Below are positions 15,127 through 64,000 of a DNA stretch of 64,000 nucleotides, piece after piece (positions within the stretch are counted from its first letter, which is position 1; every line of letters starts with the position of its first letter). The DNA comes from Macrolepiota albuminosa (lineage: Eukaryota; Basidiomycota; Agaricomycetes; Agaricales; Agaricaceae). Location: positions 186,001 to 250,000 of the forward strand of contig JAMWFC010000020.1 of NCBI GenBank assembly GCA_027475525.1. The letters are read 5' to 3'. The notes under the pieces were generated by a model. The model did no database searches, had not been told where the DNA came from, and saw only the letters and a program-made list of their open reading frames with translations. The translations under genes and the position numbers were made by a program.

Positions 15127-15587
15127 CCCTCATTTATCTTAGGGGCAGAATCATCGATTCAGAGATCCAATTGATCGGGCTTTCTATATTGTGTCACGTG
15201 TTAGCAAAGAAACCCGTGGGTTCCAAGTCAGAAACGCGTCGAATTCACTCATTACCCACAACAACTTGAGTCGTGTAGAGTAAAGCAAGGAAGTCCAAGT
15301 ATCATAAAAGTCATGAATAAACATTGTATTTCTGCTCGAAAACTGATCGATCGGAATCTTGTAAGTTTACAGGAAGGAGGCACGGGAGGAATGTGATACA
15401 CGTTTTGGGATGAGTGTCACAGTCACAATCTAATCTTGTAAGTTTACAGGAAGGAGGCACGGGAGGAATGTGATACACGTTTTGGGATGAGTGTCACAGT
15501 CACAATCTCTTTGAACATCTTATTGAAACCTCCATCTATACTATACGTATAGAGATTTCGAACTGCTTTGACTGCGTGTTTCCTTTC
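15127..15587. other. Gap before the DIRS-like element
   Basis: This holds a 77-bp tandem duplication (15355-15508) and the presumed 5' leader of the DIRS-like element. A 60-codon ORF (15087-15269) overlaps the end of the unknown gene and looks like chance. Confidence 0.4.
15355..15508. repeat. Perfect 77-bp tandem duplication #1
   Basis: Two identical 77-bp copies lie head to tail, the first beginning AATCTTGTAAGTTTAC. It lies just upstream of the DIRS-like element. Confidence 0.95.
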
Positions 15588-16748
15588 ATGGCTTCTCCTG
15601 GATCCACTGATTCGTTGCCCTCCTTGGGCGGGGGCAGTCGACCCCGTACTCGATCTCGTTTTCCTTCATCAGCCATCCTTGGCGAGGAGATATTGGATAG
15701 TCGTTCTTTAAGGCGCACTAACAAGGCGACCTCCAGTAGTACTCTGCCTTCAATAGAGGACGTTGATGAGGCTGTATCGGGAAGCGACCCAAAACGCAAT
15801 TTACCTTCTCATGCGGATGCGCATACAGCGGCACCAGCTGCAGATGCCCCCACAGGCTCGGGGCAGTCTGGGCAGGAGGATCTTACACCTGTCGCTTCTA
15901 GTGTTGTTGGTGACGTAGTTGTTCATCCAAATCTCTCTGCCCTTGCTCCTCGGCCTTCTTCGTCGGTCCCACAGACATTGCGCCCTTTATTGTCTCTTCC
16001 TCCCAGAGCAGCCCAGCAGATCCAAGCCATTCCTTTCTCTCCAGCTCGAACCATACTGAGGTCTCCTCCTTCTGTTGCCCTTCCACAGACACCTTCCTGC
16101 TCTTTTCCTCCACAAGATGTTCCCTCTATTCCCACTGTTGATTCTTGGTTACACAGTATAAATCATTTCAGCGGTATCCCTCCTATGCCAGCGGCACCAC
16201 TACCATCCACCTTTCCTTCTGGAACACATGCACCTGGGACGCATATACCTCCTTCAGGATGCGCCTCAGTCCCTATTCCTTTGGGTACATCTAATCTCGT
16301 GCCTCCTTCTTCTACATTCCCTGCTGCATCTGGGCCTCTAGTTCCGGTACCTCATTCTTCTACACTTCCTCAGGACAGTATTACGTTGTCCCAGGCTGAT
16401 CTCACGGAGCTTTTGAGAACGTTTGGTTCTCAAGTTACACAAGCTCCAGGCCCTTTTGTTACAAACGCCTCGCTTCACGGCTTTACGCCTGGTACATCCA
16501 TTAATCTTCCTGGATTGGTTGGCTTTATGCCCAGTGCACCCACAAATCCTGTGGGCTTTACGCCCAGTGCACCCACAAATCCTGTTGGCTTTACGTCCAT
16601 TGCACCTACAAATCCTGTTGGCTTTACGCCCATTGCACTCACAAACCTGGTCACCTCTTCATCCAATCCAGCTTCGAGCCAATCAGGCAGTGTTGCACCT
16701 TCATCCGATTCAGCTTTGAACCTATCAGGCAGTGTTACCCGGCCTTAA
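15588..16748 (+). CDS. Gag-like Pro/Ser-rich ORF of the DIRS-like element
   Basis: 386 residues from the ATG at 15588. The N-terminus is Ser/Arg/Gly-rich (GGGSRPRTRSRFPSS). The middle is dominated by Pro, Ser and Thr. The C-terminus has four copies of an 11-residue repeat of the form GFTPSAPTNPV encoded by a 33-bp minisatellite. No membrane segment is seen. Its position ahead of the Cys/His and RT blocks suggests a nucleocapsid role; there is no direct domain match. The frame is lost before the Cys/His block. Confidence 0.45.
   Translation: MASPGSTDSLPSLGGGSRPRTRSRFPSSAILGEEILDSRSLRRTNKATSSSTLPSIEDVDEAVSGSDPKRNLPSHADAHTAAPAADAPTGSGQSGQEDLTPVASSVVGDVVVHPNLSALAPRPSSSVPQTLRPLLSLPPRAAQQIQAIPFSPARTILRSPPSVALPQTPSCSFPPQDVPSIPTVDSWLHSINHFSGIPPMPAAPLPSTFPSGTHAPGTHIPPSGCASVPIPLGTSNLVPPSSTFPAASGPLVPVPHSSTLPQDSITLSQADLTELLRTFGSQVTQAPGPFVTNASLHGFTPGTSINLPGLVGFMPSAPTNPVGFTPSAPTNPVGFTSIAPTNPVGFTPIALTNLVTSSSNPASSQSGSVAPSSDSALNLSGSVTRP
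16521..16652 (+). repeat. 33-bp minisatellite, four units
   Basis: Four near-identical 33-bp units begin with GGCTTTA and encode GFTPSAPTNPV-like repeats in the gag-like ORF. Differences between units are mostly C/T changes. Confidence 0.85.
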
Positions 16749-16875
16749 CACCGATTATTACTGCTGCTTCCGTCAGTTCACGCCTATTGTTGGGACTCCC
16801 CCCCCGCTCTGCTGCAGAGCTTGACCCAAACATTATGCCCATTCCCTTGCGCATACAACGAGTTTTCAATTTGGG

Positions 16876-18135
16876 ATGGCACGTTTATGTTCCTCTGGAC
16901 CTCCTCACCGCCAATCTGGAAATGCCTCTCGCTGTGGTGGACGTGGTGCCTGTCACACTCCCTTTGACAGTCACACATGCGACGGAAAGCCAATCCGATG
17001 TATGGTGTGTGGAGGGGAAGACCACCGGTTCTCAGCCTGTTCAAAACCAGGAAAAATTTTGCGCCGGGTCAACGGCCGATGGTCTGATGCCAAAGGAGTC
17101 TCATTTTGTTACGCATTCAATGGACCTCAGTCCTGTTCCAACTCAAATTGCGCCCACCGACATGCTTGTTCCCTCTGTGGAGATGGACAGCATAATGCAC
17201 AAAACTGTGCTGCTTGATCTTTTTTTCCCAATTACCACACCTCTGAATGTTTCAAACTGGGTGAAGGTACTACATGAGATCAGAGCAGCTAGTCAATTTT
17301 CACATGTTATTCACGGTTTACAGTTTGGTTTTTCACTAGGTTTGGAGACATTTATCTTAGGCAAAACATTTTCCCCTCCTAATCATTATCACTCTCCTGA
17401 GCATCATAAATTCGTTGTCGAGAAGTACAAAAAGGAATGTTCACTAGGCCATGTTTCTACAGGATACCCCCCTTCTCTTATCCATAAATTGTTTGGACAT
17501 TATCGCACAGCACCCCTTAACGTTATCGAAAGTTCTAGAGGCAAACTTCGCATCACAGTAGATCACTCTTATCCTCGAAATAACCCTTCCATTCAATCCA
17601 TCAATTCTGTCATTGATTCAAAGCGTTTCCAGTGCGAATGGGGTTCATTTTCAGCTTGTTGGCTTCTCGTGGCAGATGCCCTGCTTCATACTCAGGTGGC
17701 AGTTTTCGATGTCAAATCAGCATTTTGCATTATCTCTACACGGCCACAGGAACAATTATACACGGCACTTTCTATCGATGACAAGGTCATTTTCGATCAT
17801 GGGTGATATCCACATCATCATGCAGACTCAAGCCTGTTTTACACGTATTCCGAAGACTTGATTTGGAGTGTTGCTTCTGACTTAGGTTGGCCTTGGGCTG
17901 TGGAAAATCGATCTGGCGGTCCGCATATTTATCTCAGCGGACTACAAGAATTGTCATATTGTTCTAAGGTCTGACAATGCTGGATGCGTTGGCGCTCTTG
18001 TGGCAGGCCGGTCAAGAAATTCTGCATCTAATTTCATTTTACGCCATATTGTCTCAAACTTTCAATCTCATTCTATATGGGTAACTGTCACATGGATTGC
18101 CTCTGAACAGAATTTAGCCGACGCTCCTTCTTGAG
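16876..18135 (+). pseudogene. Cys/His block, RT and RNase H remnants
   Basis: The zinc-finger-like block ends at a stop at 17215-17217. The RT fragment then continues in another frame to 17806 (AVFDVKSAF looks like the first catalytic Asp motif of RT). About 50 bp later the RNase H part restarts, with a further frame change and stops. The YxDD-bearing palm is missing. This copy cannot be active by itself. Confidence 0.5.
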
Positions 18136-18617
18136 GAATATTTCCTTCTTGTCGTTTATTGTATCCTTTTCCCCCTGCTATTCCTGCATACCTTTCTGGT
18201 CTTGTGTCTCGTAGTATCCCGTTTACATCGCTTCTGTAAAACTTTATATAGGGGTTTTGCTTCCGTAAAACTATACTTAGGGGATATACATAATAGTCAG
18301 CCACCCATATTGTCCTATTTATGCTAGGCCCTTGCACAAACTTTACTTCATGCAAACCCACATGAACGACTTTATGAACGATTTGGCATCTGATTTTGTT
18401 TTCAAGTTTTTGGCATAGCATACATGGTCAAATCTACACACACATGATACACTTGACACACCTTCATTTTTCAATCATATGCTTCAACCACCCTCACATC
18501 TGACGCACCCTTCGCTTCAAACACCCTCGCATCTTTTTCATCTTACACAGATCCCCACGCAAATGGTACATCCTACTTGTAGAGTGGGCAGAGTGCACGG
18601 TTTACCTGTTGGGTATA
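18136..18617. other. 3' tail of the DIRS-like element or decayed repeat
   Basis: It has no coding signal. A short internal repeat is present: GGGGTTTTGCTTCCGTAAAACT-like wording near 18252 echoes the preceding sequence at about 18230. It is CACA/TCAC-rich near 18430-18560. Confidence 0.35.
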
Positions 18618-18747
18618 TTCCGAGGTCTACTTTAGTAGACTGAGGTTTTACTACCTGCTTTGGCACGCATTTTGTCCTTGAAATTTGTGCCTCTCACGTG
18701 ATCTTGGCCATTGCTGTGTCTCTTCCTCTACCGGCTATGTCCTCAAT

Positions 18748-18901
18748 ATTTGCTCCCTTTTGGCTATCTTTACCGGCTATTACTACCGGCTATTACTACC
18801 ATGTCCTCGATATTTGCTCCCTTTATTTGCTCCCTTTTGGCTATCTTTACCGGCTATTACTACCGGCTATTACTACCATGTCCTCGATATTTGCTCCCTT
18901 T
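18748..18901. repeat. Perfect 77-bp tandem duplication #2
   Basis: The unit begins ATTTGCTCCCTTTTGG. It lies inside the dispersed repeat copy A, whose partner at 42 kb lacks it at this place. Confidence 0.85.
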
Positions 18902-19149
18902 CAGTTATCTTTACCAGCTATTACCACCATGTCCTCAAAATTTGCTCTCTTTTGGCTATCTTTACTGGCTATTATGTTGCTCCTCTTTTCTGCTATCTCT
19001 GCTGAGTAATTAATCAAATTTTTTATATGAAAGAATTATACTTTTATTTTCTATATATCTATATTTTAAGTTTTTTTTTTTTCTGTATTGAGTGCATTAT
19101 TGTTTTTTTTTTTACCAAGTTGAGAGATTCTGTTTTTTTTTTCATATAT

Positions 19150-19262
19150 ATATGTATGTTTTTTGAATAATTGTGTATGTTTTTTGAATAAGTGTGTATG
19201 TTTTTTGAATAAGTGTATATGTTTTTTTTTGAATAAGTGTATATGTTTTTTTTTTGAATATG
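19150..19262. repeat. T-rich minisatellite
   Basis: Five units of about 21-25 bp of the form TATGTTTTTTGAATAAGTG, with T-run length differences between units. Confidence 0.8.
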
Positions 19263-19559
19263 TAATTTGTTTCATGTTGTTAAATGCCTTGTTTATTATT
19301 GTAATTTATTACATCTAGTACCTAGAAAGAGGAGCATACATGAAAATTGTACAATTATGTGAATTTTTTTTTTTTGCTCTAGCAGTCATTATTCTGTTCT
19401 CTTCATTTATTTTCATCTTTGAAAATTAGAGCACATTGTCTTTGGTATTCATAGAACTTTTTGAATTATTTTTTCTATAAGCTTGTATAGATCCAGTTTT
19501 CCTATCCCAAGAAGTCATTCGAGGCAGAACGCAATGCATTCAATCATTGTGTGGTGATC

Positions 19560-21060
19560 CCTCCTAAATATCTGAGTGCCATACTGATCTTAAACGATGA
19601 AGGAACCCTAAGCCAGATCTGCCGCACCCCCTGAGACAAGTACTTCACCGACCACGACCCCCCAACCCCTCTGACGGAACCGACCAGGACCCCGCCTTCT
19701 CCTTGTCCCCCGACAAAAAACTCCTCCTCCGGGACGGCCGCATCTACGTCCTGGATCATGCCTGACTCCGCTACGACGTCCTCCGTCAACACCACGACCA
19801 CAAGCTCTGGAGACACCCTGGAATACGTAAGACTCTCCAGCTTATCTCCCGGACTTACTTCTGGCCAGGGTTGAAGAAGGATGTGGCCTGCTACATTTGA
19901 TCGTGCGAACCCTGCCTCCGGGCCAAGGTCCCCCAACACCGACCATACGGACTCCTGAAACCCCTGCCGGTCGGACGACGCCCTTGGTCCTCCATATCCA
20001 TGGACCACATCGTCAAACTCCCGGAATCTGAAGGGTTCAATGCCATTCTCGTCGTTGTATGTAGACTAACCAAACAGGGTATCTTCCTACCCTGCCACAC
20101 CACGGACACCGCCCCGGACTTTGCCCGGCTGTTCCTCAAGCACGTCTTTGCCAAACACAGGCTCCCAGACGACATCGTCTCCGACCGTGGCCCACTCTTC
20201 GTGTCCAAGTTCTGGACTTCCCTGTGTAAGGCCCTTGAAGTAAAGACTAACCTCTCTACTGCCTACCACCCCGAAGCCAACGGTCAGACCAAAAGGGTCA
20301 ATCAGTCTCTCGAGCAGTACCTCAGGCTGTACGTCAACTACTTGCAGGACAACTGGCACGCCGAGCTCCCCCTGGCTGAGTCCACGTACAACAATACGCC
20401 GCACTCTACCACCGGGGTATTGCCCTTCTTCGCCAACAAAGGGTACCACCCACGACTGACCCTCTCGCTCCAGGACATTCCGTCGCACGCCGCCCACGAG
20501 GTCACCTGGGATCTTCAGTCCCTTCATGAGTTCCTCCAGGAGGAAATCGACACCGCAAACCAGGCCTATGCAAAACACACTGACCGGAAACGGGAAGACA
20601 CCCCCAACTGGACCCCCGGACAAAGGTATGGTTAGATCGACGCCACCTCCGCACTTGCCGGCCCTCCCCAAAACTTGATCACAAGCGACTCGGCCCATTT
20701 AAAATTCTGAAGGTCTCATCCCACACCTACAAGATCGAGCTCTCTCCAGAACTTAAAGGTCTGCATCCGGTATTCCACATCCGCCTCCTGGAACGACACC
20801 CCCCGGATCCCTTCCCCGAATGACGGCCCGAACCCCCTCCCCCAGTCGAGGTCGAGAACGAGTACCACTACGAGGTTGAAGACATCCTCAACTCCCGAAA
20901 CATTCGTGGATGACTCCACTTCCTGATACGATGGAAGGGATACGGTTCGGAAGACAACACCTGGGAACTGTGCTGAAACCTCGAAGGCACCCTCGACCAA
21001 CTCCGAGACTTCCAGCAACGGCACCCAGGAAACGACCCTCCCGGGTGCAGGACTCACAGA
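19560..21060 (+). pseudogene. Chromovirus integrase with C-terminal chromodomain (inactivated)
   Basis: In order: HHCC zinc-binding region (HHDHKLWRHPG ... SCEPCLRAK), integrase core with SMDHIVKLP (first Asp), SDRGPLFVSKFW (second Asp) and a stretch where the catalytic Glu of QTE is read as Lys (NGQTKRVNQSL), then a GPY/F-like region (RLGPFKILKV) and a chromodomain (EVEDILNSRNIRG ... WKGYGSEDNTWE). At least five in-frame TGA codons sit where CGA (Arg) is expected, and a 1-nt frameshift lies near 20628. Such integrases insert new copies into heterochromatin through the chromodomain. This copy is dead. Confidence 0.85.
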
Positions 21061-21343
21061 TGGCAGTAGTGGGCAGAACCCCCGCCTCTGGGCTTAGTAG
21101 GGATTCAACTCCCCTGTATATTTTCTGCCCTCTTTAGATCTTACTCCCTTTTAGTACCCCTTCTCTCACAGCAGCGACCTGGAGTCGGGGCAAGCCCTCT
21201 TTTCAACTTTCCCACCACATTACAATTCCTTTTTTACTTACACTGGCAGTTCAAATATATATATTTTACTATAAGTACAGTATTTTACAGTAACAGGCCG
21301 GAACAAGAATCCACAGACAAACAAAAACAAGAAAAGAAGAAAA

Positions 21344-22707
21344 CTACCGGCCCTCGCTCCCTCCCTCCCCAGGCCAGCCTCGAAACCCCTCCCCCATTCC
21401 CTCCGGACCGTGCTCCTGCAATACCTCTACCAACTGCTCCCAGAATGGGAGAGACTCACCCTCATCCAGGACTTTTTCGAACCAGGAGCCAGGGGCAGGC
21501 ACGTTCCTCCGCCGGTGTGCTGACACCACCCGCCCCAGCAAGTCGAGGCCCCGCTCCACCCCAGGGGTCGTCACCTCAGGGCGCTGCCTCTCCTGCAGCG
21601 CCGTGAGTGCCGTGGCCACCCCGTCTAAGAGCAAGCAGTGCTCTTGGGCCCAGCCTGGAAATGTCAATGAGAGACCAAGTCCGAGGAGAAAGAGACTCAC
21701 TTAACGAGGCCATGCGGGCCACCACTACGTCCCAGTGCAGAGCCTCCACCAACCCCTGACTCCCTGCCCAAGCCTCGCCTTCAGGGCCTCTAGCTCAGCT
21801 CCCAGGCGACCCTGGCCTCCTCCAGGCCCCGGATCATCTCCTCCCGACCCTCCTCCAGACCCCTCCCGGCCGCCGCCTCCTCCCTCATCCCCTCCTCGTG
21901 ACCCCCCTGCTCCTGCCTGGCCCGCTCCTGCAAAACCTCGACGTCATGAGCTAGGAGTCCCCTGGACAAGGAGGAGAACTCCGTGGGAGATAGGCGCAGG
22001 AGGAAGACCAGGGATGGGGTCCCCAGGGGCAGGCGCGCCCTCTTGGAGGGGCCCGAGGAGGGACTAGGCGATGCCCGCCTCTTCCCTTTGTCCCACGACC
22101 CTCGTGATTGCCGGTCCCAGCCCAGGTCACCCGACGGGTAATCAGGACCATGGGCCAGCCCCGGCCCCCCACCCGGACAACCTCTCGGCCCCCCGACCCC
22201 CCACTGGGCACCTCCTCCACCCCCTCCCGCTCCTCGACTCCCATCCTCTGAGTAACCCCCCCCAGCAGCCACCCCTGCTCCCTGGAGACACAACGCGCCC
22301 TCCACAGCGCTGACACGGAGCACTGCTCATGGTTGAGACAGCAGGCCTCGCAGACGGACGTATCCCAGCAGGACGAGGGGCCTGGAACCTCAAATAAGCA
22401 AGGGACCACGCATTGGGCACAGTGCAAGCACTGCACCAAAGTCAGCAAGGAAGACCAGAGGTAGGAGCCCACTCACCGGTCCGTTGCTCACGCATCAGGC
22501 GTGGGCAGGTAGACTCTGGAGCCTCTCTAGGGCCTCCCCGAACAACTCCTGCATCACGGCTGCCCACACAACACGTTGATCTTCCGGGACCTCTGAAACG
22601 GTCCCTACCGCCATCCTGGAGCGACGGAAATGGGGGGCAGGCAGTCTAGGGCAGGGAGGGGGGTGCGGACAGGGAGGGCGGACAGTTATCCGCGCAAAGG
22701 TGGGCAT
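21344..22707 (-). CDS. Antisense Cys-rich, coiled-coil ORF chain inside the chromovirus (unknown)
   Basis: I do not recognise a family. On the minus strand, between the chromodomain and the 3' LTR, long overlapping ORFs chain together. An N-terminal part (22707-22495) has DQRVVWAAVMQELFGEALERL. A Cys cluster at about 22440-22290 has the spacing C-x2-C-x2-C-x3-C-x9-C-x5-C-x2-C-x6-C (LHCAQCVVPCLFE ... CEACCLNHEQC). A basic nuclear-signal-like patch (KRRASPSPSSGPSKRAR) is followed by a Glu/Arg-rich coiled coil (EVLQERARQEQGGHEEG). A C-terminal block lies at 21700-21344 (WFEKVLDEGESLPFWEQLVEVL). Splicing is needed to join them; donor and acceptor sites exist but a stop remains near 22495. High GC favours chance ORFs, so this is tentative. 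Confidence 0.35.
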
Positions 22708-24249
22708 GGTGATAGGCTTCTACTCGGACTGAGCGCATCAAGGGACATTATAGGCTGACCAACACTTGACACACTAGAGACTCTAGCGACCAGCCTTGGG
22801 TACAGAGCAGCCCTAGCACGGGCGCTCTATGGCAAGACTTATCCATTCATCTCAATCACCAGTATCAGCCCCTCAGCGCACTCCACTCAGTTACTTTGAA
22901 GACCAAGAAGGCCCAGAACTCATAGCGCTAGCACAACGGCGGGAGGTGACTCTGACCAAACCCCGATCAGTACTGAAAGGAGTTAGCAACTGGCGCTGTC
23001 AATCACCGAGGCACCTCAATCAGAAGTCTAAAGGAATCAATGACGACGAGACAGGATACACGCAGACCCGACATTTAAATCTATCAAAAGATGGTACAAT
23101 GTTTAGCGCCGGAATTAGCGCTCATAGACAGGATACACGCAGACCCGACATTTAAATCTATCAAAAGATGGTACAATGTTTAGCGCCGGAATTAGCGCTC
23201 ATGGCATCTGTCGAGGATTCCCCGACCATACCCCGGGATGGCATGGCCAATTAACTTACATCAAAAAGTGAGCAAACTCGTACCACTTCTAGGTATTTTT
23301 AGAGTCGCCGTTGGTCGCCATCACCCATGTGCTGCAGGTCGCCGTTGACAGGTGGCTATTAGCTACAGTCACGAAGAGAGGCGCTAATTGGTAGTGCCGT
23401 CAATGGACTTATTTTGGAAATACCATAGCGCATAGTATAAAAACTAGCTACTTGCCATGTATATAACAACGAATCGTAACCTCTTGAGCACCCAGTTACA
23501 CTTAGCGTTCAAATCGCGCTAGCATTGCCTAACTTAGTCAACAAGTTTGGCGCTAGCTTTGTCTATCTCGTCTTCGTCGTTTACGGTGCCACCTACGGGC
23601 ACGCTACGCTGTGCTATTCGTCTTGTTCTCTATAACTTCTCCTAAACTACGACACTTACCACTTATTAGGTAGCACCTGAGGCGCTATCATCTAGCGCAT
23701 CGCCCTATCACCTCTGCTCGAGCACACCGGGACCCTGTCGGGACTCCTCATAAACCTGTATGCCAGGCGCTGGAGACGGTGTTGTACTGCGTATACGTCT
23801 AGCGCACCCAACCACAGTTGGCGTCATCAACGGGACGACTTGAACGGGACTCCAGGGGGACGCTGGGGCCCGCATCAGGAACAGGCTTCGGGAGCCAGCT
23901 GGGACCTGCCTCCAGAGGAGTAATATTGTGTTGTTCTGAAAAAAGAAGGTCAGTAACGACAAGCGAGCGGCACAGGAAGCGCTCATGTTGTCGCACAAGC
24001 GCCGCCATGCGCTCCTGGTCCAGACGGGCTCAGTACCACATATCCCGGGCTTCCCAGGCCATGAGAGGTGCGACCTTGTTAGTTTGCGGGGGCGTCGGGG
24101 AATGCGTTGGCGTACACGACATGGTTGAGTTTGATGGTAAAATTTTTTTTGATATGTGGCAGGTCAGGTGCTGGATCCCACAATTGGACCCCGGTCCAGA
24201 CCACTGGCCACGCGTGCCTCAGAGGGTCTCAGCGCTGAGGGGGGGGTGA
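22708..24249 (+). other. Non-coding 3' region of the truncated chromovirus
   Basis: No supported coding sequence between the antisense ORF chain and the LTR. It contains a 77-bp duplication, many GCGCTA/TAGCGC words (a repeated AGCGC-type motif) and ends in a polypurine tract at 24237-24249. Confidence 0.45.
23049..23202. repeat. Perfect 77-bp tandem duplication #3
   Basis: Unit begins AGACAGGATACACGCAG; it lies in the 3' region of the truncated chromovirus. Confidence 0.95.
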
Positions 24250-25079
24250 TGTCATGACCCCTCCCCTCCAGATCTACCCTGGGACACCCCCGGAACACCA
24301 TCCGGGACCCTCCCTCCGACCCCACAGGACACGCCCCGCCATCACAAATACCGACACTGCCATCACACGCATCAAGGACCGCCATCAACCATCATCAGCC
24401 CCGATCAATGATCGGATCACGCGACTTGTTCCGGCCATCGCGCATCACGCATCATGGCTCCATTCGTGCCAATTGATCGCGCGCCCCACACGCGCGATCC
24501 CGGTATGCAGCCCCTGCCGCTACTCAATAACCCCCAGAACCCATCCCAGACATCCCGGAACCCCGAGACCCGGCCCCGTAGTACTTATAGCATAGTTCCC
24601 TGTTGTATTCGGGAGTCTTGATATTACATACACTGTTACATTGCTTTACTTGGATTGTTGTGTGCCCTCTGCTTGACTGGTACGCACTGACTGGCACGCT
24701 TTTGACTGGCATGCTTGAATACTCGCGTGCTCTAAGATTGGTATGCACTTCGCGACTTTAATTTGCTAACTTGGTCTTGTCTTAGAACCTCCGGTTCACG
24801 ACTCGACCCCCACCCGAACTCCCCAGCTACTTACCACCCAAAACCCCCAGACCAAATCCCCTTCCCCGGGATTCCCCTGTCCACGTCTTGAACCCCGGAG
24901 TCCTAGCCCCGGAGTTCCAGACATCCGAGTATCCGTAGGTCAAGTCCGCATTGTAAGGGCGATCGCTTTCCCGGAAGGCCCCCGACTCAGCGGAACCTGA
25001 CAGGAGTATCCGTAGGTCAAGTCCGCATTGTAAGGGCGATCGCTTTCCCGGAAGGCCCCCGACTCAGCGGAACCTGACA
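24250..25079 (+). repeat. 3' LTR of the truncated chromovirus
   Basis: It begins TGTCATGACCCCTCCC just after a polypurine tract and ends CGGAACCTGACA, so TG...CA. It is about 753 bp once the internal 77-bp duplication is removed. It matches the solo LTR at 27029-27736 on the opposite strand. Confidence 0.85.
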
Positions 25080-25080
25080 G
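24927..25080. repeat. Perfect 77-bp tandem duplication #4, ending at the LTR border
   Basis: Unit begins GAGTATCCGTAGGTC. Each copy ends within one base of the LTR terminus, so the duplicated unit is the last 76 bases of the LTR plus one flanking G. Confidence 0.95.
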
Positions 25081-25690
25081 GGTGGCATACCTCCCAAAAG
25101 AGTTTTTGTGGCTTGAAAGGGGCGTTGGCATTAGCAGCCATCAGCTGGCATCCATCAGAGTTTATCGGCAGCTGTTGTGACCCGCTGGCATCTGTTGGCA
25201 TCTGTTGGCATCTGTTGTGCATTTGTCGGCATCTGCTGGATATCCGCTGGTATCCGTTGGCATACACAGGAATTTGTTGGCAACCCCCAGCATCGTCTGG
25301 CATCATCTGGCATCAGGGCAGGAGAGAAGGAAACGGGGTGCGTGGGTGTCCACCGCATGGGATGGTGTCTCAGAGAGCGTGGGGGGTGGCGGAAGAGGGA
25401 TGGGGGTGGGGAGAAAGAGGGGGAAGGGGGAAGGAGAGGAGCATGGGTGTCTGCTGGTACGCCAGCAGACGTAGCAGATGTCGGACGTCAGGTCAGGGGG
25501 GAGGAGGGAAGCAGGGTGCATGTGGTGGATGGGGGTGGCATGTGAGGTAGTGTGGGGAGTGGAGAGGATGGCACTGGGGAGAAAGAGGGGAAAGGGCAGA
25601 AGAGGGTGCGTGAGTGTCCGCTGTCCGCTGGCATGCCAGTGGACGGTAGCGGACGGTAGCTAACGTCAGCATGTGAGCCAGCTGATGTCA
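25081..25690. other. G-rich, TGGCATC-repeat region
   Basis: Plus-strand G-rich sequence with short degenerate repeats (TGGCATCTGT, TCGGCATCTGC) and long overlapping ORFs in all frames caused by composition. No coding sequence is supported. It is probably remains of another element. Confidence 0.45.
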
Positions 25691-25700
25691 GCGGTGCAAC

Positions 25701-25780
25701 TAGTCCCAGTGGTTCAGTGGAATATTTGTTTATTGATATTCAATATTGTGTACAGTGGTGGGTTCTACTCCCTCTACTCC
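25701..25780 (+). repeat. tRNA-like SINE copy 1
   Basis: A-box-like AGTGGTTCAGTGG, an AT-rich middle with TTGATATTCAATATTGTG, then a B-box-like GGGTTCTACTCC. Confidence 0.55.
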
Positions 25781-26022: not shown

Positions 26023-26176
26023 CTGCAGAAATCTCTGGAGTTTTAAACGGATCACATTAATGATGCTAGCAGACATCAGCGGCCTGCTGCTCTAATATGC
26101 TGCAGAAATCTCTGGAGTTTTAAACGGATCACATTAATGATGCTAGCAGACATCAGCGGCCTGCTGCTCTAATATG
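26023..26176. repeat. Perfect 77-bp tandem duplication #5
   Basis: Unit begins CTGCAGAAATCTCTGGAG; it lies at the edge of SINE copy 2. Confidence 0.95.
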
Positions 26177-26251
26177 CACTAGCAGGAGTCAAACCCACCT
26201 CTTGTGCACAATATGAAATATCAATTTATCAATATTCCATTGTACCACAGG
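26175..26251 (-). repeat. tRNA-like SINE copy 2 (inverted)
   Basis: Read on the minus strand: CTGTGGTACAATGGAATA (A-box-like), TTGATATTTCATATTGTGC, then GGTTTGACTCC (B-box-like) and CTAGTGCA. Confidence 0.6.
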
Positions 26252-29977: not shown

Positions 29978-32900
29978 TCATGCCGTCGGTAAGTCAGGGA
30001 CAGGGGCAATGGAAGAGTCCTCAGGCTCCCAGAATAGATCGGCAGTCGCATCGTCCATGTCGTAGTCGAGGAGTTCATCCTCGGGTGCGGGCGCATAGGA
30101 AGTACCCGAAGGCCCTGCTACTGGCAGGGAATCGTCATAGTCCCGGAGGGGGGACAGTGTGAGATTGGGGTCGATGAAGTACCCGAAGGCCCTGCTACTG
30201 GCAGGGAATCGTCATAGTCCCGGAGGGGGGACAGTGTGAGATTGGGGTCGATGGTTGACCCCGGGACAGGTGGTTGGGGATCAGGCAGATCCCCAGTGTC
30301 GGACGGGTACTGGCGCGTCCAGATTTCACGGGCATGAATGTCTTGTCCGATGGAGAGGTACATCCCCTTGGCAAGCGCGTCATCATATGCATGACAACTG
30401 TCCTGCTGCTGGAGCATCAGGCGTTGGCGATCGCCAATGGTGGCCTTGCGCCACCCATCCCACTGAGGGATGGACTGGGGTGTACCGTAGTGGTCGAGGC
30501 GTTGTAGCCTCTCGTCGTCGATAGCAGCCGCCTCGTTGTAGAGCCGGCTGTCGCTGAAGAATAGATGGGCCAAGTAGGTGACCCCATAAGTGTACGCGTG
30601 GTCAGCCCAGCTGACCGGAATTTGATTGTGAAGAAGGACGCGTAACGCGTCCGAAGTGGTGAATACGGAAGCTGACGCTTCTGGGATGTCCACAGCCCGA
30701 ACCTCGAAGGTAGGGTCGTCGGCGTGGAGAGGCTCAAAGGCTTGCCCCGTGGCCGCCTCGTACTCAGCCACGGCCTCTTTGTAGAGGCCTGGCCTGGCGA
30801 AGACGTAGGCCAGGTACTTGTGTACCGTGGCCTTGGAGGGGCGGCTGGCGCTGAGGGCGCGTACAAGCGCAAACCCAAAGAGGCTGCGCCAATGAATGCG
30901 CATGGCTCGGTCCATGGCCAGACCGGTCCACACGTTGGACGTCCCAGGGCGTCCATAGAGGAGGGCGTATGAGCCCAGGTAGTCCAAAGCAAATGGTTGC
31001 TTTGGATCAGGGGGGGTAAGGCCGACGAAGGCAATTTTCCCTCCTTCTTTGCGGCGATAGAGCCGCAATGGCACAATCATTCGCGGGACATTCTCCCGCT
31101 CCTCTGGACTCGCGAAGGGTACCGCGATAGTCCTATACTCGACCTCGTCGAGTAAATGAGACATAGCTCTGTCTCGGGCCATAGGGTGGCAGTTGAGCGC
31201 CACCCGCTTGAATTCGTTGAGCAAGAGGTAGCCCAACTGACGCTGACAAAGCAGCGTAAACTGGTTGTTAACCAGTGCGTGAAGTCTGCAGACTTCTCGA
31301 GGACTGCGGGGAAACCCGCGAGGTGCAACTTGGTACACCTTACTGTTGTGGGGCGTCGCGGCGGCGTTGCCCTGTTTATCGTCCTCGAAGGACCTGGCTG
31401 TGCGGGCTTCTTGCCCGACGAAGATGGTATTGGTCATTGGCGACCAATAGAATTGGGGAGCCAACCCCACGCCAAAGAATGAGTTCTGGCGCTCAATAGT
31501 GTGATCACGGTAGATCACCACACCGAGCGCATCAGGGATGCGCCCGGTTTCGTCCTCAAGGAGGGCGGCCCCTCGTTTGGCGCTGTTCTGCGCCTGACGC
31601 TCCATCTTGGCTTGTCAATTGCTGTTGCGCCGTTCGCGCGCCATATGCTGTGCCGCCGTCTCGTGCGGCACTGGGGATTCCATACGAGCCTCTTCAGGCT
31701 CCTCATACCAATCGTCGTCGGAGGGAGGGGAAGGCAGCCTCTCCGGCTCCGACTTCTCAGATCGTGGGTCCATTGCCCACACACACCGCGGGAGTTGGGC
31801 TGGCAGGCCCTCTACCAGTATAGCGGGTAAAAAGAGGATGTTAGCCCCTGGGGCCCCTTTCGGGGCATCCTCGGGGAAGTGCACGTTGACGTAGGCACGC
31901 CCTTCCGGTTGCGGATGTTAGCCCCTGGGGCCCCTTTCGGGGCATCCTCGGGGAAGTGCACGTTGACGTAGGCACGCCCTTCCGGTTGCTTACTCCGACG
32001 ATCCTTTTGGGGTTGTGAGGCCTTGGCCTCAGTGGGGCGTGTGCTCACGCCCCTGGAACTCTGCTCCCCAGAGTACGTGGTGGATACCACGGATACTGGT
32101 CACGAAGACGTGACCTCAGACGCGCCGCTGGCAAGGCGCTGGATAAGCCGGGGGGCGGCTGGAGCAGGAACATCTTCATAGGGGAGGATGTCCCGTCCTA
32201 AACCGGCCTCCCAGCTGGGGGCAGCAACGCTTGACTTAATCGAGTAGGAGGGCGCGTCCTCCACTCCTTGCCAACGCGCTCTTTTGCTGGAGTCAGTGTC
32301 CCGACTCGGGGGTGTAGTCTGCCGCTTACGAGCAGCCGAAAGGGCAAGGAGATCAGTTTTGCGCTGAGCGTGCATATGATCCATGTCGTCCATCATCCAG
32401 CAGATGAGGACGACTGCCTCCGCATCGCGGAGGAATGATGACTCTGCAGGTACATCGTACCCATTATCTCCCAGATGTTGGAGAAGGGTAGCCAGGACTA
32501 AGTCCTGGCTGTGAGTGGGCTCGACAGCCCGTGCTTTTCCTTTGTCACGTCGAGGACACGACTCTTCTTCTGAGCTGGGCTCGGATTGGTGCGGCATTTC
32601 CAGCTGCTGTAGCAAGGAGAGCTTGGCCAAGCTCTCCGTCGGCGCATCAGCCGATGAACTGATGCTCCGTTCTGTATTGAGAGTTTCTGTACTCTCACTG
32701 GCCGCGGTGGCCTGCACGAGGGATGCTTTGCGTCCCTCTAGATTGTCAATTGGTGCTGTGGTCGACAGGGAAATTGACTGGCCTCCCTTGGCTTGCGACT
32801 CATGCGAGTCGCTGTACTGGGGCATTGCGCCCCAAGCCCCCATCCAAGCCGGGGGGTACGGCATCATTACGGGCACACCACCCATCCCAGGGTAGTGCGC

Positions 32901-35064: not shown

Positions 35065-35218
35065 CCTTGAGCAACTGGGCGGCTACATCCCGCTCTTCAC
35101 GCTGCTCTCTGAGGCGAGTGCTTCGCCTCCGTTCATCATCACCTTGAGCAACTGGGCGGCTACATCCCGCTCTTCACGCTGCTCTCTGAGGCGAGTGCTT
35201 CGCCTCCGTTCATCATCA
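35065..35218. repeat. Perfect 77-bp tandem duplication #8
   Basis: Unit begins CCTTGAGCAACTGGGCGG; it lies between RNase H and the HHCC domain of pol and breaks the frame. Confidence 0.95.
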
Positions 35219-35518
35219 CGCATAGCACATACTTCCAGGACATGCTCCCTGAGCTCCTGGTATCGGTGGAGAGGTAAATCCTCTCCATCAGGGTCTATGC
35301 GGCAGTCTGCCTGCACATACTCATGAGGCTCGTGAGCCTCCCCGACTACATCACTCTCAAAGTAGCGTGACAAGCAGTCTGCCACTTTGTTGAGTTCACC
35401 TTTAACATAGGTGATGTTGAACTGGTATCTCGACATGTAGTCTATCCACCATCGCTGACGCGGCGACAAGTTCACCTGAGTTTTAAAGAACTCAAGGGCT
35501 TTGTGGTCCGTTATGATG

Positions 35519-35672
35519 TGGATGGGGTATCCCATCAGCTTATCCTCCCACTTGAGGAGGGCCTCGAGTATGGCAAGAGTTTCCAGCTCATGCACTGGAT
35601 GGGGTATCCCATCAGCTTATCCTCCCACTTGAGGAGGGCCTCGAGTATGGCAAGAGTTTCCAGCTCATGCAC
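35519..35672. repeat. Perfect 77-bp tandem duplication #9
   Basis: Unit begins TGGATGGGGTATCCCATC; it repeats codons of HELETLAILEALL in RNase H and breaks the frame. Confidence 0.95.
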
Positions 35673-42067: not shown

Positions 42068-42221
42068 TTCCGAGGTCTACTTTAGTAGACTGAGGTTTTA
42101 CTACCTGCTTTGGCGCGCATTTTGTCCTCGAAATTTGTGCCCCTTTCCGAGGTCTACTTTAGTAGACTGAGGTTTTACTACCTGCTTTGGCGCGCATTTT
42201 GTCCTCGAAATTTGTGCCCCT
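42068..42221. repeat. Perfect 77-bp tandem duplication #10, at a repeat border
   Basis: The duplicated 77 bp are exactly the first 77 bp of the dispersed repeat. Confidence 0.95.
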
Positions 42222-43087: not shown

Positions 43088-43607
43088 TGATAATCTGTTC
43101 TAAAATTGCATTTTGACATATTGATTGAGTTTATAAATTTGCTTTCTTTTAGCATTTTATACCTAGTTGTCAATCTGCTATGATGCTAAGTGTCATTGAA
43201 TATGAGTTTATAAATTTGCTTTCTTTTAGCATTTTATACCTAGTTGTCAATCTGCTATGATGCTAAGTGTCATTGAATAAAAATTATATATGAGAGTTTT
43301 CAATCTATAACTCCTTTTATTTATGCATATTTAAAGAGTCAACTGTTAATTTTAGTCTCTTATCTACATTAACTGATACACTTAATATATTGAAATAAAT
43401 AATTAGAGAGCTATTAGAAACTGAGAAACTTTAATTAATCATCTTGGATATAAATTATATCTTGTGCTTATATAGCACTAAAAAATATCTACAAGAAGCA
43501 GATTCATTTCTCATTTTTAGCATAGTTTGTTGTAGTACTCAAACTATTTCTGTTTACAAGCTATAAATATGAAGCCACAATTGCAGAGAGATACATCTGT
43601 TTCTGTA
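43088..43607. other. AT-rich non-coding stretch
   Basis: It contains a 77-bp duplication (43126-43279). No ORF or recognisable element. Confidence 0.4.
43126..43279. repeat. Perfect 77-bp tandem duplication #11
   Basis: Unit begins TGAGTTTATAAATTTGC. Confidence 0.95.
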
Positions 43608-48146: not shown

Positions 48147-48149
48147 TGG

Positions 48150-49122: not shown

Positions 49123-53437
<4,315 letters not shown>

Positions 53438-54121: not shown

Positions 54122-54536
54122 GCAGGATTAAACAAATAAACGTACAACGCGATGGTCTCTTTATTCGAAACTATAAGTACGAATATCAGATGTACATCTT
54201 TATGGATTTGAGCACATAACATGTAGCAAAAAGATTTATGCACAATGCTTGACCAATAGGGTGGTGTCAAGAGAATATAGCACAAATGATAACAAGGAAA
54301 ATGGTCATGCATCAAAAAAATGGTCAGTAATAGGGCGTCATGTTTTGTAAAGCATTACGTAGCAAGATCATGAAGAAGCGTAGAGATGAAGTGGGGGGGG
54401 CGTGAAATGTATGAACTATAAAAACAGCAAAAGAGAAAAAACTAGTGTATAGCTTGCGATGATCATGACATTAGAGATGATATACCTGCAAGGCAGGGCA
54501 AAGAGGGAAAGCAACGATTGCGAGACTCAAACACGG
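54122..54536. other. Intergenic between convergent PEBP and large gene
   Basis: Convergent 3' flanks, AT-rich, with a G run at about 54392. It shares the phrase ACAACGCGATGGTCTC with about 53108 (another trace of the local duplication). Confidence 0.4.
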
Positions 54537-57500: not shown

Positions 57501-60500
57501 CACATCAGCGTCGGACATGACAACGTCATCCTCATCCTTAACGCGCGAGAAACTAAAACCCGCGTCCAACTCACCACCCTGTTCACTTTGTCCGATGTGT
57601 ACCAAATGCGGCGGGAGCTTCGGCACAGGCGGCACCTCTGCCGCAAACGCATACCTCAAATCAACCTTTGCCGGCGTCCTAAACGCATTCTCCAACTGCT
57701 CAACAAACGACTGCCGATCCGACGCGCCAGACTCATTCAGCTTCCTAATCTCCGCCGTGAAATCAAACGACTTCTTGGTGCTATCGATATCGAGATCCTC
57801 ATCGGACGACATGGCATCCGCGTCCCGCGTGAACACACACCTATTCTCCTCGTCAAAAAACTCAGTGCGGAAAGTCGGAATGTCCAAAGCGGGCAAAGGC
57901 AGTACACGTCCAGAAGAATCCACCATCTCATCATCCACATCCCCCTCCTCCCTACCCAACTGAACATCCTCTCCACCAAACCCACTCATCCCCAATATCC
58001 TTCTCCTCTGAGCACGATCACCCTCTTCGTCCACCTCCATGGGCATCCCCGCAGACGCCAGAACCGGAGTCGGAGCGGGGGAAGGGGAAGGAGAAGGAGA
58101 ACGTGCAGGAGACGGCGCGCGTCGGAACACCGGACTCCTCATGGGCGTCGGCCAACCCCCAGACCCAAAACTCGCCTCCGCGTCTCCACTCGACACCTCG
58201 GACACGGCCTTTGACCCCCTGCGAGACGACGACGAGCGCGACCCAAACGTCCTCAACGAAGGCGCACGCACACCTCGGACACGGCCTTTGACCCCCTGCG
58301 AGACGACGACGAGCGCGACCCAAACGTCCTCAACGAAGGCGCACGCACGGCTTCACCTCTCCCGCCGCCGCCGCAGTCGCAGTCGCAGTCACACCCGCAG
58401 CGGCGGCTTCGAACTGCGCTCTGAGCAACGCGATTGCGCCTCTTGATTTGGCTGGCCTCAGAGGCATGAACACAGGCTCCGGCTCCGGCTCTGGCCCAGG
58501 CGTCGTCATCGTCGTCGCGGTAGTCGTCGCGGTAGTCGCCACCGAGCGCCCCAACCGACACGTACGCTGCACAGGCGTCTTCTCCCCACTTGCCTCCCCG
58601 CCCTCATCTCCATCTTCATCCTCATCCTTATCCTCGTCAACAGGAGAAACACCATCTTTCGAAAACAACATCGGCCAAGGGGCGATTCTCCGTCCTATAG
58701 GCTGTACCTGTACCCCCTCCACCAAAGTCGTTTTCCCCTTGTCCTTCCCCTTGTCCTTGTCCTTCTCTTGGCCCATCACGCTCGCACTCGTACTCGCGCC
58801 CGTGATCGCAGCGACCGCATGACCAGGACCAGGACCGGCAGCGGCACCGCCACGCAGCGTGTTCCGCCGGCTCTGCGCATAAGGCCTCAACGAGCCTACA
58901 GACGGCACATCATGCGTGCTCCCGGATCTAGACCTCCCCTTCGTCATCATACTGGCCTCCACGTTAATACTGGCCTCCACGTTAGCGTTTGTGTTAGCGT
59001 TAGCGTTCGTGTTCGTGTTAGCGTCAGCATGCGTGGTCGCACTACCGCCCTCGTCAGTCCCAACTTCCACCCCCACCTCCGCCTTGGTCTTGGTCTTGGT
59101 CTTGGTCTTGCCATCATCCTTGATTTCGTCCTCACACCTCCTCCGCTGACTTCCAACACCAACACCAACAAACGGCGCCAAAACCGGCCTCAACGGCGTC
59201 ACAGTCACATCGGGCGTCGCAGGCGTCGCTTCCAGATCTAAATGATTAATAAGCTGCGCCAGGTCGTCCGTCGCCGCGTCCAGGATAGACAACACCCCTG
59301 TCACAATCACGAATCACGAATCCAAATCAGCGTCTTGCCCTCAAAGAAAAAGTAAAAGAAAAATGGAAGGGAAAAGGGAAAGGGCAAGGAAAGGAAAGAA
59401 AAAGAGACTAACCATCTGCACCCTCATACAACGCCCTAGGCCTACTCCTTCCATCCAACTGCTCAGAATGCCAACGATGCCTAGCCCGTCTCAACGGCGT
59501 CTGAATCTCCTTCTCTCCATCTCCATCTCCCTCTCCCTCTCCTTCTGCCTCTCCTTCGCCATCCACCTGCGTCTGCGTGTGCACCTCCAAACCCTCAAAC
59601 ACCTCCGAAACAAGCACCCTCCTCCCCTTCTTCCTCTTCCTTGTCCCCTCTCCCTCTCCCTCTCCCTCCCTCTCTTTCTCTTTCTCGCGCTCCTTCTCCC
59701 TCTCTTTCTCGCGCTCGCGCTCCTCACGCTCCCTCCTCCTCGCCACACGCCCACTCTCCAAACACCCCTCGTCCCAACGCACACTACACCCACTCCCGCT
59801 GGACAACCTGCTTCCCCTCCCGCTCGACACCTCCGACACGACCGATTCAGGCCGCAGACTCTCCGTCACCGTTCCCGTGCCTGTTCCAGCACCCAAGCCA
59901 GAGCCCGAGCACGAGCCAGAGCCAGAGCACGACCCCGAGCCAAAGCCAGAGCACGACCCCGAGCCAAAGCCAGAGCCCGCAGAGTCACGGCATATAACCA
60001 ATATCGGCTGTCCATCTACATAAACCAAACCCAGAATCAATCAGAACCTCGTGTTCCCCTCCAACGTACATAATATAATCATACTCACCAGACGACTTCA
60101 CACCCGCACTCGCACTCACAGCCGGACTCGTTATACCCTCGCGCACAGACGCGTTGGTCTTACTCTTACTCATCCCCATGCCCATCCCCATGCCCATGCT
60201 CAAGCCGATAGTAGAGGGCAGGCCTAGTCCCAGGCCTAGTATACTCCGTTTCTTGCTCCCGAGGCTTTTCTCTTTCTCTTTCTCTTTCTCTTTGTCTTTC
60301 TCCCTCTCGGGCGTCGCAGACCCAACTTCGAAACTACTCGTCGACCCTCGGGCACGGACGCGGCGCAGCGTCGGCGTAGGAGTCTCGTCGTCGCAGACCC
60401 AACTTCGAAACTACTCGTCGACCCTCGGGCACGGACGCGGCGCAGCGTCGGCGTAGGAGTCTCGTCGTTCGTCTCGGCTTTCTTCTTCTTCTTCTTCTTC

Positions 60501-61600: not shown

Positions 61601-61751
61601 TGTGGCGCGCCTCTGTCCCTCGAGGGAGGAACCCACACAAAAGATCAAGTTCAACCATAGATCACGCGACTCGAGTATCCATAGATGTACCACGTGACCG
61701 CGAGTAAAAAAAGCGTGAATGAAGTGCACGTGCTCAGCCACGCCTACGCCC
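61601..61751. promoter_or_regulatory. Divergent promoter of CHK1 and the large gene
   Basis: Only 151 bp separate the two start codons. It contains CACGTGACCGCG and a second CACGTG (GTGCACGTGCTC), E-box-type palindromes 40 bp apart. No TATA box is seen. Confidence 0.55.
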
Positions 61752-64000
61752 ATGAGCACAAAGTATCCGCAAGTCGTCGGTGCGTCTGGTTCGCGCGTGT
61801 CCCCGTGCGCTGTGTGACTGTTTAACAGGCTACACGCTGGTGCAGCAGATCGGCGGTGGCGGGTTCTCCACGTACGTCCCATTCCCATTCCCATTCCCAC
61901 GGTCTCATCCGCGTCTCATGCGCGCCCGCAGCGTCTTCCGCGCCGTCAACGTCGACACCCACCGCGTCGCCGCGTGCAAGCTGACGACCGTCACCGACCC
62001 CGCCGCGCGCAAAGCCGCCGAGAAAGAAATGCGCATCCACGCCGTCCTCAAACACCCCCGTGTCCTCGAGTTCCTCAACGCCGTCGTCGTCGAGCCCAAA
62101 CACGCCCATCTATACGTCCCCGGCATATACATGCTCATCGAACTCGCAGCCGGCGGCGACCTCTTTGATAAAATCGGTTCGTCCTCGCGTTGGCGTTCGC
62201 GCCCGCACGTGTAATCTCTTTCTCTCTCTCTCTGCAGTCCCAGACGAGGGCATCCAAGACGACGTCGCCCATCTGTACTTTACCCAGCTCCTCTCTGGCA
62301 TGGTGCGTCCTATCCTGCTCTGCCTCTCCCTCTGCCGCCTGGGATCTAACCGAATCCAGGACTACATCCACACACAAGGCGTGTGCCACCGCGACCTCAA
62401 GCCCGAGAACCTCCTCCTCGACGCAGCAGGCGCCCTCAAAATCTCCGACTTTGGTCTCTCCGCCGTATACAAGCTCAAAGAATCAGGCCGCACGCGTCTC
62501 CTCACCGAACGCTGCGGCAGCCTGCCCTACGTCGCTCCAGAGGTATGTATACTACCCCCCGTCTTCACGCTTCCTAATACGCTCACGCGCCACAGCTCAA
62601 CTCGGACGAACCGTACAACGCCGAGCCGATCGACGTATGGGGCATCGGCGTCATCTTGTACGCCATGCTCGCAGGCAGTACGTCTTCCCCTCTCTCCCCA
62701 ACCCAACCCAACCCAACCCGACCCGATCCAGACACGCCCTGGGACGAACCAACGACGCACAGCCCCGAATACGCACGATACATCTCCGGCGCAATATTCG
62801 ACGACGCCCCATGGTCCACCTTTTCCGCCGAAGCACTATGTACGTCCCCCGTCCTTCGTCCCAAACACACACTAACACACCATCACCAACACCACCACCA
62901 ACAGCCCTCATCTGCGGTCTTCTGACGATCGACCCGCGCGACAGACTCACACTCGCAGACGCGTTCCAGCACCCCTGGTGTATCCGGTACGCCCCCCCTA
63001 TCCTCTCCTTTCCTCGCGCTAACACCACACGCGCACCGCACCGAACAGACCAAGCCAACTCGCGAACCAAGCGCCGTCTGTACTCGCCGAGCAACTCACC
63101 GCGCCCCTCCGCGCAAACGGCGACATGGCCCTCGCCGCGCCGAACCTCGGGCACGTCTCGTCTCGTCCCTGTCTTCGTCCCAGACTAACTAACCTCTCTC
63201 CAGGCCCACCGCATCTACACCCGACGAGTCCCCCTCCCAACTCTCAAGTTCCCAATTCACACAGTCCCTCATGCTCTTCGTACGTCCCCCTCTTTCCTCT
63301 CCTCTTGCCTTTTCATCCTTTTTACTTTTATGTTACCTCCCTCGGCGTATCGTATCGTATCGCAGTCCCAAACACAAGCTGGAACGAGGTACACACCGCA
63401 CCTGACGCGGTTCTACGCGTCGCTCGCGCCGTTCGCGTTCGTGCCGCGTGTGTGTGAGGCGTTGGATGCGCTTGGTGTTAGGTGGAAGAGGAAGATCGTA
63501 CCGGGTGTTGATGTGGAGGCTTGTACGGATACTAACACCGACGCGGACGCGGACATCGATGCAAACACGGGCATCGACATCGACATCGACATCGACGCAA
63601 ACACCGACGCATACACCGACGCATACACCGACACCAACATGAGCACGAGCACGCACGGACACGAAAACGCGCCGCAGCGGGTCCGCATCGGAGGCTACGA
63701 CGCGCGTAAAGTCGCATTTAAAGGATGGGTCACGGACACGAAAACGCGCCGCAGCGGGTCCGCATCGGAGGCTACGACGCGCGTAAAGTCGCATTTAAAG
63801 GATGGGTCGATATCGAGCCGTTCGCGTACCGCGGTCATGAGGGTTGTTTTGTCGTTTTGAGTCGTGATGTCGTGCGTCGTTCTTCTCTCTTTTTCTTCTC
63901 TCTCTTTTTTTGGGGGGTTTCCTTGTTTTTTATTATTATTATTATTATTATTTTTTTTTTGGGGGGGGGGGGTTTCTGGTTTTTTTTTTTTTTGGTTTCA
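61752..64000 (+). CDS. CHK1: Checkpoint kinase CHK1, partial at right edge
   Basis: Ser/Thr kinase of the DNA-damage and replication checkpoint, acting in the nucleus on Cdc25-type targets. Exon 1 61752-61779 (MSTKYPQVV), then [15 protein letters not shown] (P-loop), [17 protein letters not shown] (ATP Lys), [89 protein letters not shown]. The [10 protein letters not shown] activation segment is typical of Chk1. The regulatory tail follows with an SQ/TQ-like [19 protein letters not shown] and the conserved [10 protein letters not shown] region, which is readable only after removing one copy of the 77-bp duplication at 63654. After FVVLSRDV a GTGCGT donor leads into low-complexity T/G sequence; the last exon must lie beyond the window. 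An Asp/Thr repeat (about 63520-63650) inserts into the tail. At least eight short introns. Confidence 0.92.
63526..63650 (+). repeat. Asp/Thr-coding short repeats in the CHK1 tail
   Basis: GACATCGACATCGAC and GCATACACCGAC units encode IDIDIDID and [10 protein letters not shown]. Confidence 0.8.
63654..63807. repeat. Perfect 77-bp tandem duplication #15
   Basis: Unit begins CACGGACACGAAAACG; it lies in the conserved C-terminal part of CHK1 and shifts its frame. Confidence 0.95.
63885..64000. repeat. Low-complexity T/G/ATT sequence at the window end
   Basis: TCTC runs, (ATT)n, T runs and a 13-G run with no coding potential, lying in a presumed CHK1 intron. Homopolymers of this kind often mark contig ends. 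Confidence 0.7.

What the first reader, a model, noticed from the sequence alone, without database searches (positions are those of the whole stretch)
15355..63807. Fifteen perfect tandem duplications, all with a 77-bp unit: signature of uncollapsed k=77 assembly overlaps
I measured 15 head-to-tail exact duplications (starts 15355, 18748, 23049, 24927, 26023, 30099, 31836, 35065, 35519, 42068, 43126, 44572, 58193, 60312, 63654). Every one has period 77 and total length 154, though the sequences are unrelated (LTR, pol, Tc1, SINE edge, host exons). No biological process gives one fixed unit length regardless of sequence. In a de Bruijn graph, neighbouring edges overlap by k bases, and 77 is a common largest k in short-read assemblers. 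Joining edges without trimming the overlap would give exactly this. None were seen in the first 15 kb or between 44.8 and 58 kb.
Basis: partly seen in the sequence, partly recalled or inferred. Interest (0 to 1): 0.93.

Follow-up and report, generated by a model that had tools for sequence, protein, structure and literature searches.

The report
False 77-base duplications from assembly overlap
The fifteen perfect 77-base repeats are almost certainly not biology but the overlap between neighbouring assembly pieces written out twice, an error seen across this fungal genome assembly that breaks genes on paper.

Summary
All 15 perfect duplications are there, each with period exactly 77. (1) In 19 stretches of 10 kb taken by place from the same 100-Mb assembly, 31 of 32 exact tandem duplications (periods 30-599) have period 77. 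(2) Repeat length beyond 77 fits chance flank matches: 43/24/10/1 observed, 42.7/22.2/8.7/3.0 expected. (3) Six of 15 sites have a counterpart on homologous contig C11; all six look single there, and C11 has its own 77-bp duplication where the window is single. (4) In 5 of 8 independent tests the unit ends at the base where another copy diverges, as a branching de Bruijn node should (0.34 expected, P 4e-6). (5) The one N gap held (100 N) has the same 76 bases on both sides; that 76-mer is doubled at spacing 77 on another contig. A host gene and a gypsy-type pol lose their frame at these joins. The window is fungal. Estimate: 7,000-27,000 joins genome-wide. SPAdes at K=77 is plausible but unproven.

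The parts
15355..15508 (.). exact 77-bp tandem duplication (run 77)
   Evidence: unit once in L002 (contig C11), which differs at the base just left of the unit; window-to-L002 alignment breaks at 15431/15432 with a 77-base overlap on L002
18747..18901 (.). exact 77-bp tandem duplication (run 78), in an LTR-like direct repeat 18618-19501 / 42145-42950
23049..23202 (.). exact 77-bp tandem duplication (run 77) in a dispersed repeat
   Evidence: 26 of 40 scored genome places carry the unit once, by my reading of the table
24927..25081 (.). exact 77-bp tandem duplication (run 78) in a dispersed repeat
26023..26177 (.). exact 77-bp tandem duplication (run 78)
30099..30253 (.). exact 77-bp tandem duplication (run 78); the 498-codon ORF 30118-31614 (-) ends inside it
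31836..31989 (.). exact 77-bp tandem duplication (run 77)
35065..35219 (.). exact 77-bp tandem duplication (run 78) in a Ty3/gypsy-type pol; ORFs 35083-35616 and 34451-35173 (-) meet inside it
   Evidence: 21 of 40 scored genome places (the window among the 40) carry this unit and the 35519 unit once each, by my reading of the table
35519..35672 (.). exact 77-bp tandem duplication (run 77) inside the RNase H domain of the pol; ORFs 35535-37514 and 35083-35616 (-) meet inside it
   Evidence: PF17917 split as profile 3-74 and 48-105
42068..42221 (.). exact 77-bp tandem duplication (run 77)
   Evidence: related single copy at 18618 (74/77)
43126..43279 (.). exact 77-bp tandem duplication (run 77)
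   Evidence: unit once in L002 (C11)
   Evidence: on C11 two hits overlap by 79 bases, so once (table only)
58193..58348 (.). exact 77-bp tandem duplication (run 79) in a host gene; ORFs of 327 and 717 codons (-) meet at it, the first ending inside it
   Evidence: unit once in L035 (C11), where the frame is open through the site; contiguous relative P0003
60312..60468 (.). exact 77-bp tandem duplication (run 80)
   Evidence: once on C11 (overlap of 80; sequence of L048)
63654..63808 (.). exact 77-bp tandem duplication (run 78)
   Evidence: the C11 match is 76 bases shorter over the site (table only)
59210..59286 (.). 77 bases single here but exactly duplicated on homologous contig C11 (L035:458): the reciprocal case

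Best explanation
Each duplication is a join between two pieces of a short-read de Bruijn graph that share a 77-base node. The pieces were laid end to end without trimming the shared node, so the 77 bases appear twice. Pieces end where the graph forks, that is where nuclear haplotypes or repeat copies differ, which would explain why many of the 15 lie in dispersed repeats. Of the joins seen, one carries 100 N between the two copies and the rest have no gap. Shown: the fixed period, single-copy counterparts, coincidence of unit ends with branch points in 5 of 8 tests, and the N gap. Inferred: the program (SPAdes at K=77 fits, because its graph segments overlap by K; recalled) and the later step, probably scaffolding or path joining with long reads, that failed to trim.
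For: Period spike: 31 of 32 exact duplications in 19 stretches taken by place; 78 of 78 at periods 40-159 in the 329 kb held. Run lengths fit 77 plus chance. The C11 counterpart looks single at 6 of 6 window sites that have one (two of the six from tables only), and C11 has a duplication of its own where the window is single. Branch test: 5 of 8 independent cases diverge at the base directly next to the unit; 0.34 expected, P 4.4e-6. A 100-N gap is flanked by the same 76 bases; that 76-mer is doubled at spacing 77 on C90 and single at four other places. A host gene and a pol change frame at duplications.
Against: 3 of 8 branch tests fail: the other copy diverges 1, 2-4 or 6 bases away, not 0. 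The overlap across the N gap is 76, not 77. Six further period-77 duplications carry one internal mismatch, which needs a later edit such as polishing. Several diverged repeat copies have duplications at the same or nearly the same offset; I put this down to score-ranked sampling plus shared variable sites, without a full census. No reads were examined.
Confidence: 0.92

Rival explanations
1. The doubling arose in another computing step with a 77-base parameter, for example a gap filler or a hybrid read-correction step that re-inserts a 77-mer anchor, rather than in joining graph pieces.
For: The fixed period alone does not name the step. Six near-copies with one mismatch show some editing after the join. 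The overlap across the one N gap is 76.
Against: A gap flanked by the overlap and unit ends at forks are what unmerged graph pieces give directly.
Confidence: 0.07
2. A biological process (repair synthesis, transposition) makes tandem duplications of a fixed 77 bases.
For: The duplications are exact and many lie in repeats; some repeat copies share the offset.
Against: One fixed length in unrelated sequences, no microhomology beyond chance, single units on the homologous contig (and others), and nearly the same unit on both sides of a run of N.
Confidence: 0.005
3. Ordinary tandem repeats or old inherited duplications of repeat families.
For: Other tandem arrays do exist in the window (for example periods 13-64).
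Against: Apart from very short units those arrays are imperfect and of many periods, while the 77s are exact; only 1 of 32 exact duplications in the sample taken by place has another period.
Confidence: 0.002

Closest known systems
False homotype duplications at contig boundaries (Rhie et al. 2021, PMC8081667; passages seen)
   Same: An overlap at a branching point of the assembly graph is kept in both neighbours, so scaffolding yields tandem duplicates.
   Different: There the length is often about one corrected read, the assemblers are overlap-layout-consensus, and a gap lies between the copies. Here the length is fixed at 77 and all but one of the joins seen have no gap.
Contig-end overlaps of SPAdes graphs, removed by Unicycler (PMC5481147; passages seen)
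   Same: Neighbouring graph segments repeat sequence at their ends, which Unicycler removes so that each leads directly into the next.
   Different: Here it was left in. That the overlap equals K in SPAdes is recalled, not read.
False segmental or gene duplications from mis-assembly (Kelley and Salzberg 2010, PMC2864568: listing and two passages; PMC9516828: passages; pig and chicken false tandem duplicates in PMC4662242: passages)
   Same: Duplications created by the assembler that mimic biology.
   Different: Those are haplotypes placed twice or long duplicated regions; here the copies are exact and of fixed size.

Membership tests
Untrimmed k=77 de Bruijn overlap | Fixed period equal to k across unrelated sequences, assembly-wide | tested here: met
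   31 of 32 exact duplications in 19 by-place stretches from 15 contigs; 78 of 78 at periods 40-159 in the 329 kb held. A sample, not the whole assembly.
Untrimmed k=77 de Bruijn overlap | Copies exact, with no extra homology at the edges | tested here: met
   run excess 43/24/10/1 against 42.7/22.2/8.7/3.0 expected; 6 further near-copies carry one mismatch
Untrimmed k=77 de Bruijn overlap | Unit is a branching node: another copy of the 77-mer differs at the adjacent base | tested here: met
   5 of 8 independent cases, 0.34 expected; 3 of 8 miss by 1 to 6 bases; 4 pairings whose other copy is itself duplicated were set aside
Untrimmed k=77 de Bruijn overlap | Homologous sequence carries the unit once | tested here: met
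   6 of 6 window sites with a C11 counterpart (44572 and 63654 from tables only); 9 of 15 sites have no C11 counterpart in L002
Untrimmed k=77 de Bruijn overlap | Reads hold a single copy | not testable with these tools
   no reads held
False homotype duplication at contig boundary | Gap of N between the copies | tested here: inconclusive
   one N run in 49 sequences held, and it is flanked by a 76-base overlap; the period-77 joins themselves have no N
SPAdes K=77 as the source | Assembly record names the program and K | not testable with these tools
Biological tandem duplication | Spread of lengths and microhomology at junctions | tested here: not met
   that biological ones show both is recalled

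The most novel reading that the evidence does not exclude
A cellular process in this fungus writes tandem duplications of exactly 77 bases at sites where the two nuclear haplotypes or repeat copies begin to differ, for example a fixed-length strand-invasion and resynthesis tract.
Probability: 0.004. Interest if true: 0.95.

Novelty: not a real feature. Interest (0 to 1): 0.2.

Why it matters
Extrapolating from 190 kb taken by place, the assembly carries roughly 16,000 such joins (bootstrap 95% 7,400-26,900), about 1.3 Mb of false sequence. Since 77 leaves remainder 2 on division by 3, each one inside a coding exon shifts the frame; the window shows this in a host gene and in a pol gene. Gene counts, pseudogene calls, transposon decay and tandem-duplication statistics taken from this assembly would be affected. 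A scan for exact duplications of a single period is a cheap check for any assembly.

Tried and rejected
Rejected: biological fixed-length duplication, inherited repeat structure and chance (see rivals). Diverged repeat copies with the duplication at the same or nearly the same offset (L029 against L028; L044, L045 and L046 against L043) looked at first like inheritance. But the genome search scores only 40 of 218 to 2,030 candidates and cut loci from the best of those, which favours copies duplicated near the same place; other copies have it at other offsets (L040, L041, L042 against L037), and 21 of 40 and 26 of 40 scored places are single by my reading of the tables.

The Laccaria hybrid-assembly paper (PMC10995626; abstract, impact statement and assembly section seen) showed no link to this genome in the parts seen. 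A search for small-subunit rRNA did not complete. Eight paper searches for such artefacts (two of them listed nothing) showed no paper that, from its listing, describes this exact fixed-k form; this covers one open-licence library, and of the papers listed I opened only four (passages of PMC4662242, PMC8081667, PMC9516828 and PMC2864568) besides PMC10995626.

Six of 31 ORFs of 200 codons or more have an end inside a duplication, against 2.2 by random placement (P 0.034): weak support, not relied on. An earlier count said 36 of 37 for the by-place stretches; the right count is 31 of 32.
Full report
OBSERVATION. A scan of periods 1-399 finds 15 exact head-to-tail duplications with period 77 in the window, at the coordinates given (one start shifts by a base because the run is 78), and no other exact duplication with a unit over 24 bases. 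Tandem Repeats Finder agrees. The window is G000:C29:186001-250000, in an assembly of 100,137,612 bases and 129 contigs.

WHERE IT LIES. The window is fungal. A host protein read from 56202-58142 (-) has 220 relatives; of the 120 listed, four name an organism (Rickenella mellea, Mycena galopus, Hygrophoropsis aurantiaca, Infundibulicybe gibba), all agaricomycetes (recalled). A Ty3/gypsy-type element with protease, zinc knuckle, reverse transcriptase, RNase H and integrase zinc-binding domains lies at 34.4-40.1 kb (the element type is my reading of those domains). Part of the window is homologous to contig C11 in reverse orientation (hits between C11:412 and 500 kb). I infer the second nuclear haplotype of a dikaryon. 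The two differ much in length: between the units at 15355 and 43126 there are 27.8 kb here and 1.4 kb in L002, while between 44572 and 58193 there are 13.6 kb here and about 79 kb on C11.

SPECTRUM. I took 19 stretches of 10 kb by place, 5 on C29 and 14 on other contigs. They hold 32 exact duplications of periods 30-599: 31 of period 77 and one of period 36. Counts per stretch range from 0 to 7, with 9 of 19 at zero, so the joins are clustered. In the 329 kb held at that point, which includes loci chosen by homology, periods 40-159 give 78 exact duplications, all of period 77 (one counted twice through overlapping loci). Near-exact ones (88% or more) number 7 of period 77 and 5 of other periods. 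Extrapolation gives about 16,300 joins, bootstrap 95% 7,379-26,879.

EDGES. If the unit is exactly 77 and flanks match only by chance (0.26 per base), the excess over 77 should be 0/1/2/3 in 42.7/22.2/8.7/3.0 of 78 cases. Observed: 43/24/10/1. So there is no microhomology beyond chance; that biological tandem duplications usually show some is recalled.

UNDUPLICATED COUNTERPARTS. Six of the 15 sites have a C11 counterpart, and all six look single: 15355 and 43126 (exact unit once in L002), 44572 (two hits overlapping by 79, the run length, table only), 58193 (once in L035), 60312 (overlap of 80) and 63654 (341 bases against 417 of query, table only). The other nine sites lie between 18.7 and 42.3 kb, in the stretch that L002 lacks (15951-42261). 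For three of these nine, dispersed genome copies were counted by reading the tables: 21 of 40 scored places carry both the 35065 and the 35519 unit once, and 26 of 40 carry the 23049 unit once. Six of the nine were not counted in this way. The reverse case exists too: C11 duplicates 77 bases (L035:458) that are single in the window at 59210-59286.

BRANCH TEST. A de Bruijn edge ends at a node only if the node forks, so some other copy of the same 77-mer must differ at the very next or previous base. Among 78 duplications held, 9 pairings with an exact single-copy match elsewhere could be made, 8 of them independent (L048:2813 repeats L035:458); 4 pairings in which the other copy is itself duplicated were set aside. 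In 5 of 8 the other copy differs at the base directly adjacent. The null rate comes from all shared 77-mers of the same sequence pairs and predicts 0.34; P = 4.4e-6. Three of 8 miss, by 1, 2-4 and 6 bases. For 60312 the hit uses one of four equivalent placements, which the null allows for.

THE GAP. Only one of 49 sequences held contains N: L016 (C11), a run of exactly 100. The 76 bases before it recur exactly after it. The same 76-mer occurs 8 times in the genome: twice around that gap, twice on C90 at spacing 77 with no gap, and once each on C1, C54, C111 and C122. By inference the same graph node was joined untrimmed at two unrelated places, once with a gap. A run of 100 N is a mark of scaffolding software, not of a cell. 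Why the overlap is 76 and not 77 there is not explained; a base may have been lost at the gap.

CONSEQUENCES. The host gene at 56.2-59.3 kb appears as ORFs of 327 and 717 codons that meet at the 58193 duplication (the first ends inside it; the second, stop to stop, begins 4 bases beyond it). On C11 the frame is open for at least 910 codons through the same site, and a 997-residue relative (P0003) matches both window ORFs in order. C11 and the window also differ by a single base next to this site. The pol appears as three ORFs meeting inside the 35519 and 35065 duplications, and the RNase H domain is cut as profile positions 3-74 and 48-105, an overlap of about 77/3 residues.

POST-JOIN EDITING. 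Six period-77 duplications have one internal mismatch, five of them transitions; a seventh candidate runs to the end of its locus. Inference: polishing placed a variant on one copy.

MECHANISM AND SOURCE. Best explanation: graph pieces sharing a 77-base node were concatenated without trimming. That SPAdes creates overlaps at contig ends, and that Unicycler removes them, is stated in the Unicycler paper (PMC5481147, passages). That the SPAdes overlap equals K, and that 77 is one of its standard K values, is recalled. The kind of error is known as homotype false duplication at contig boundaries (PMC8081667, passages).

VERDICT. The interest lies in assembly quality only.

Noticed in passing
window 15951-42261 against L002 (C11): About 26 kb of transposon-rich sequence on C29 is absent from L002 of the homologous contig C11 (unit spacing 27.8 kb against 1.4 kb); a direct repeat of about 0.9 kb (18618-19501 / 42145-42950, 82% identical) brackets most of it and may be old LTRs.
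   Followed up: partly
window 44572-58193 against C11:417.7-496.7 kb: The same two sites are 13.6 kb apart here and about 79 kb apart on C11, so C11 is much longer in that interval; content not looked at.
   Followed up: no
L009:4012, L014:2453 and 2891, L018:3165 and 8280, L033:675: Period-77 duplications with a single internal mismatch, five of six transitions, as if one copy had been edited after the join.
   Followed up: partly
L016:3773-3872: A 100-N gap flanked by the same 76 bases; the same 76-mer is doubled on C90 and single on four contigs.
   Followed up: yes
window 24250-25003 / 27736-27027: Inverted repeat of about 750 bp, 86% identical.
   Followed up: no
window 29697-29932 / 40958-41193: 236-bp direct repeat, 97.5% identical and ungapped, with a diverged inverted relative at 28650-28883; possibly recent element ends.
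   Followed up: no
window 2973-3062: A tRNA gene (Rfam RF00005, 48 bits), the only RNA family found at the gathering score.
   Followed up: no
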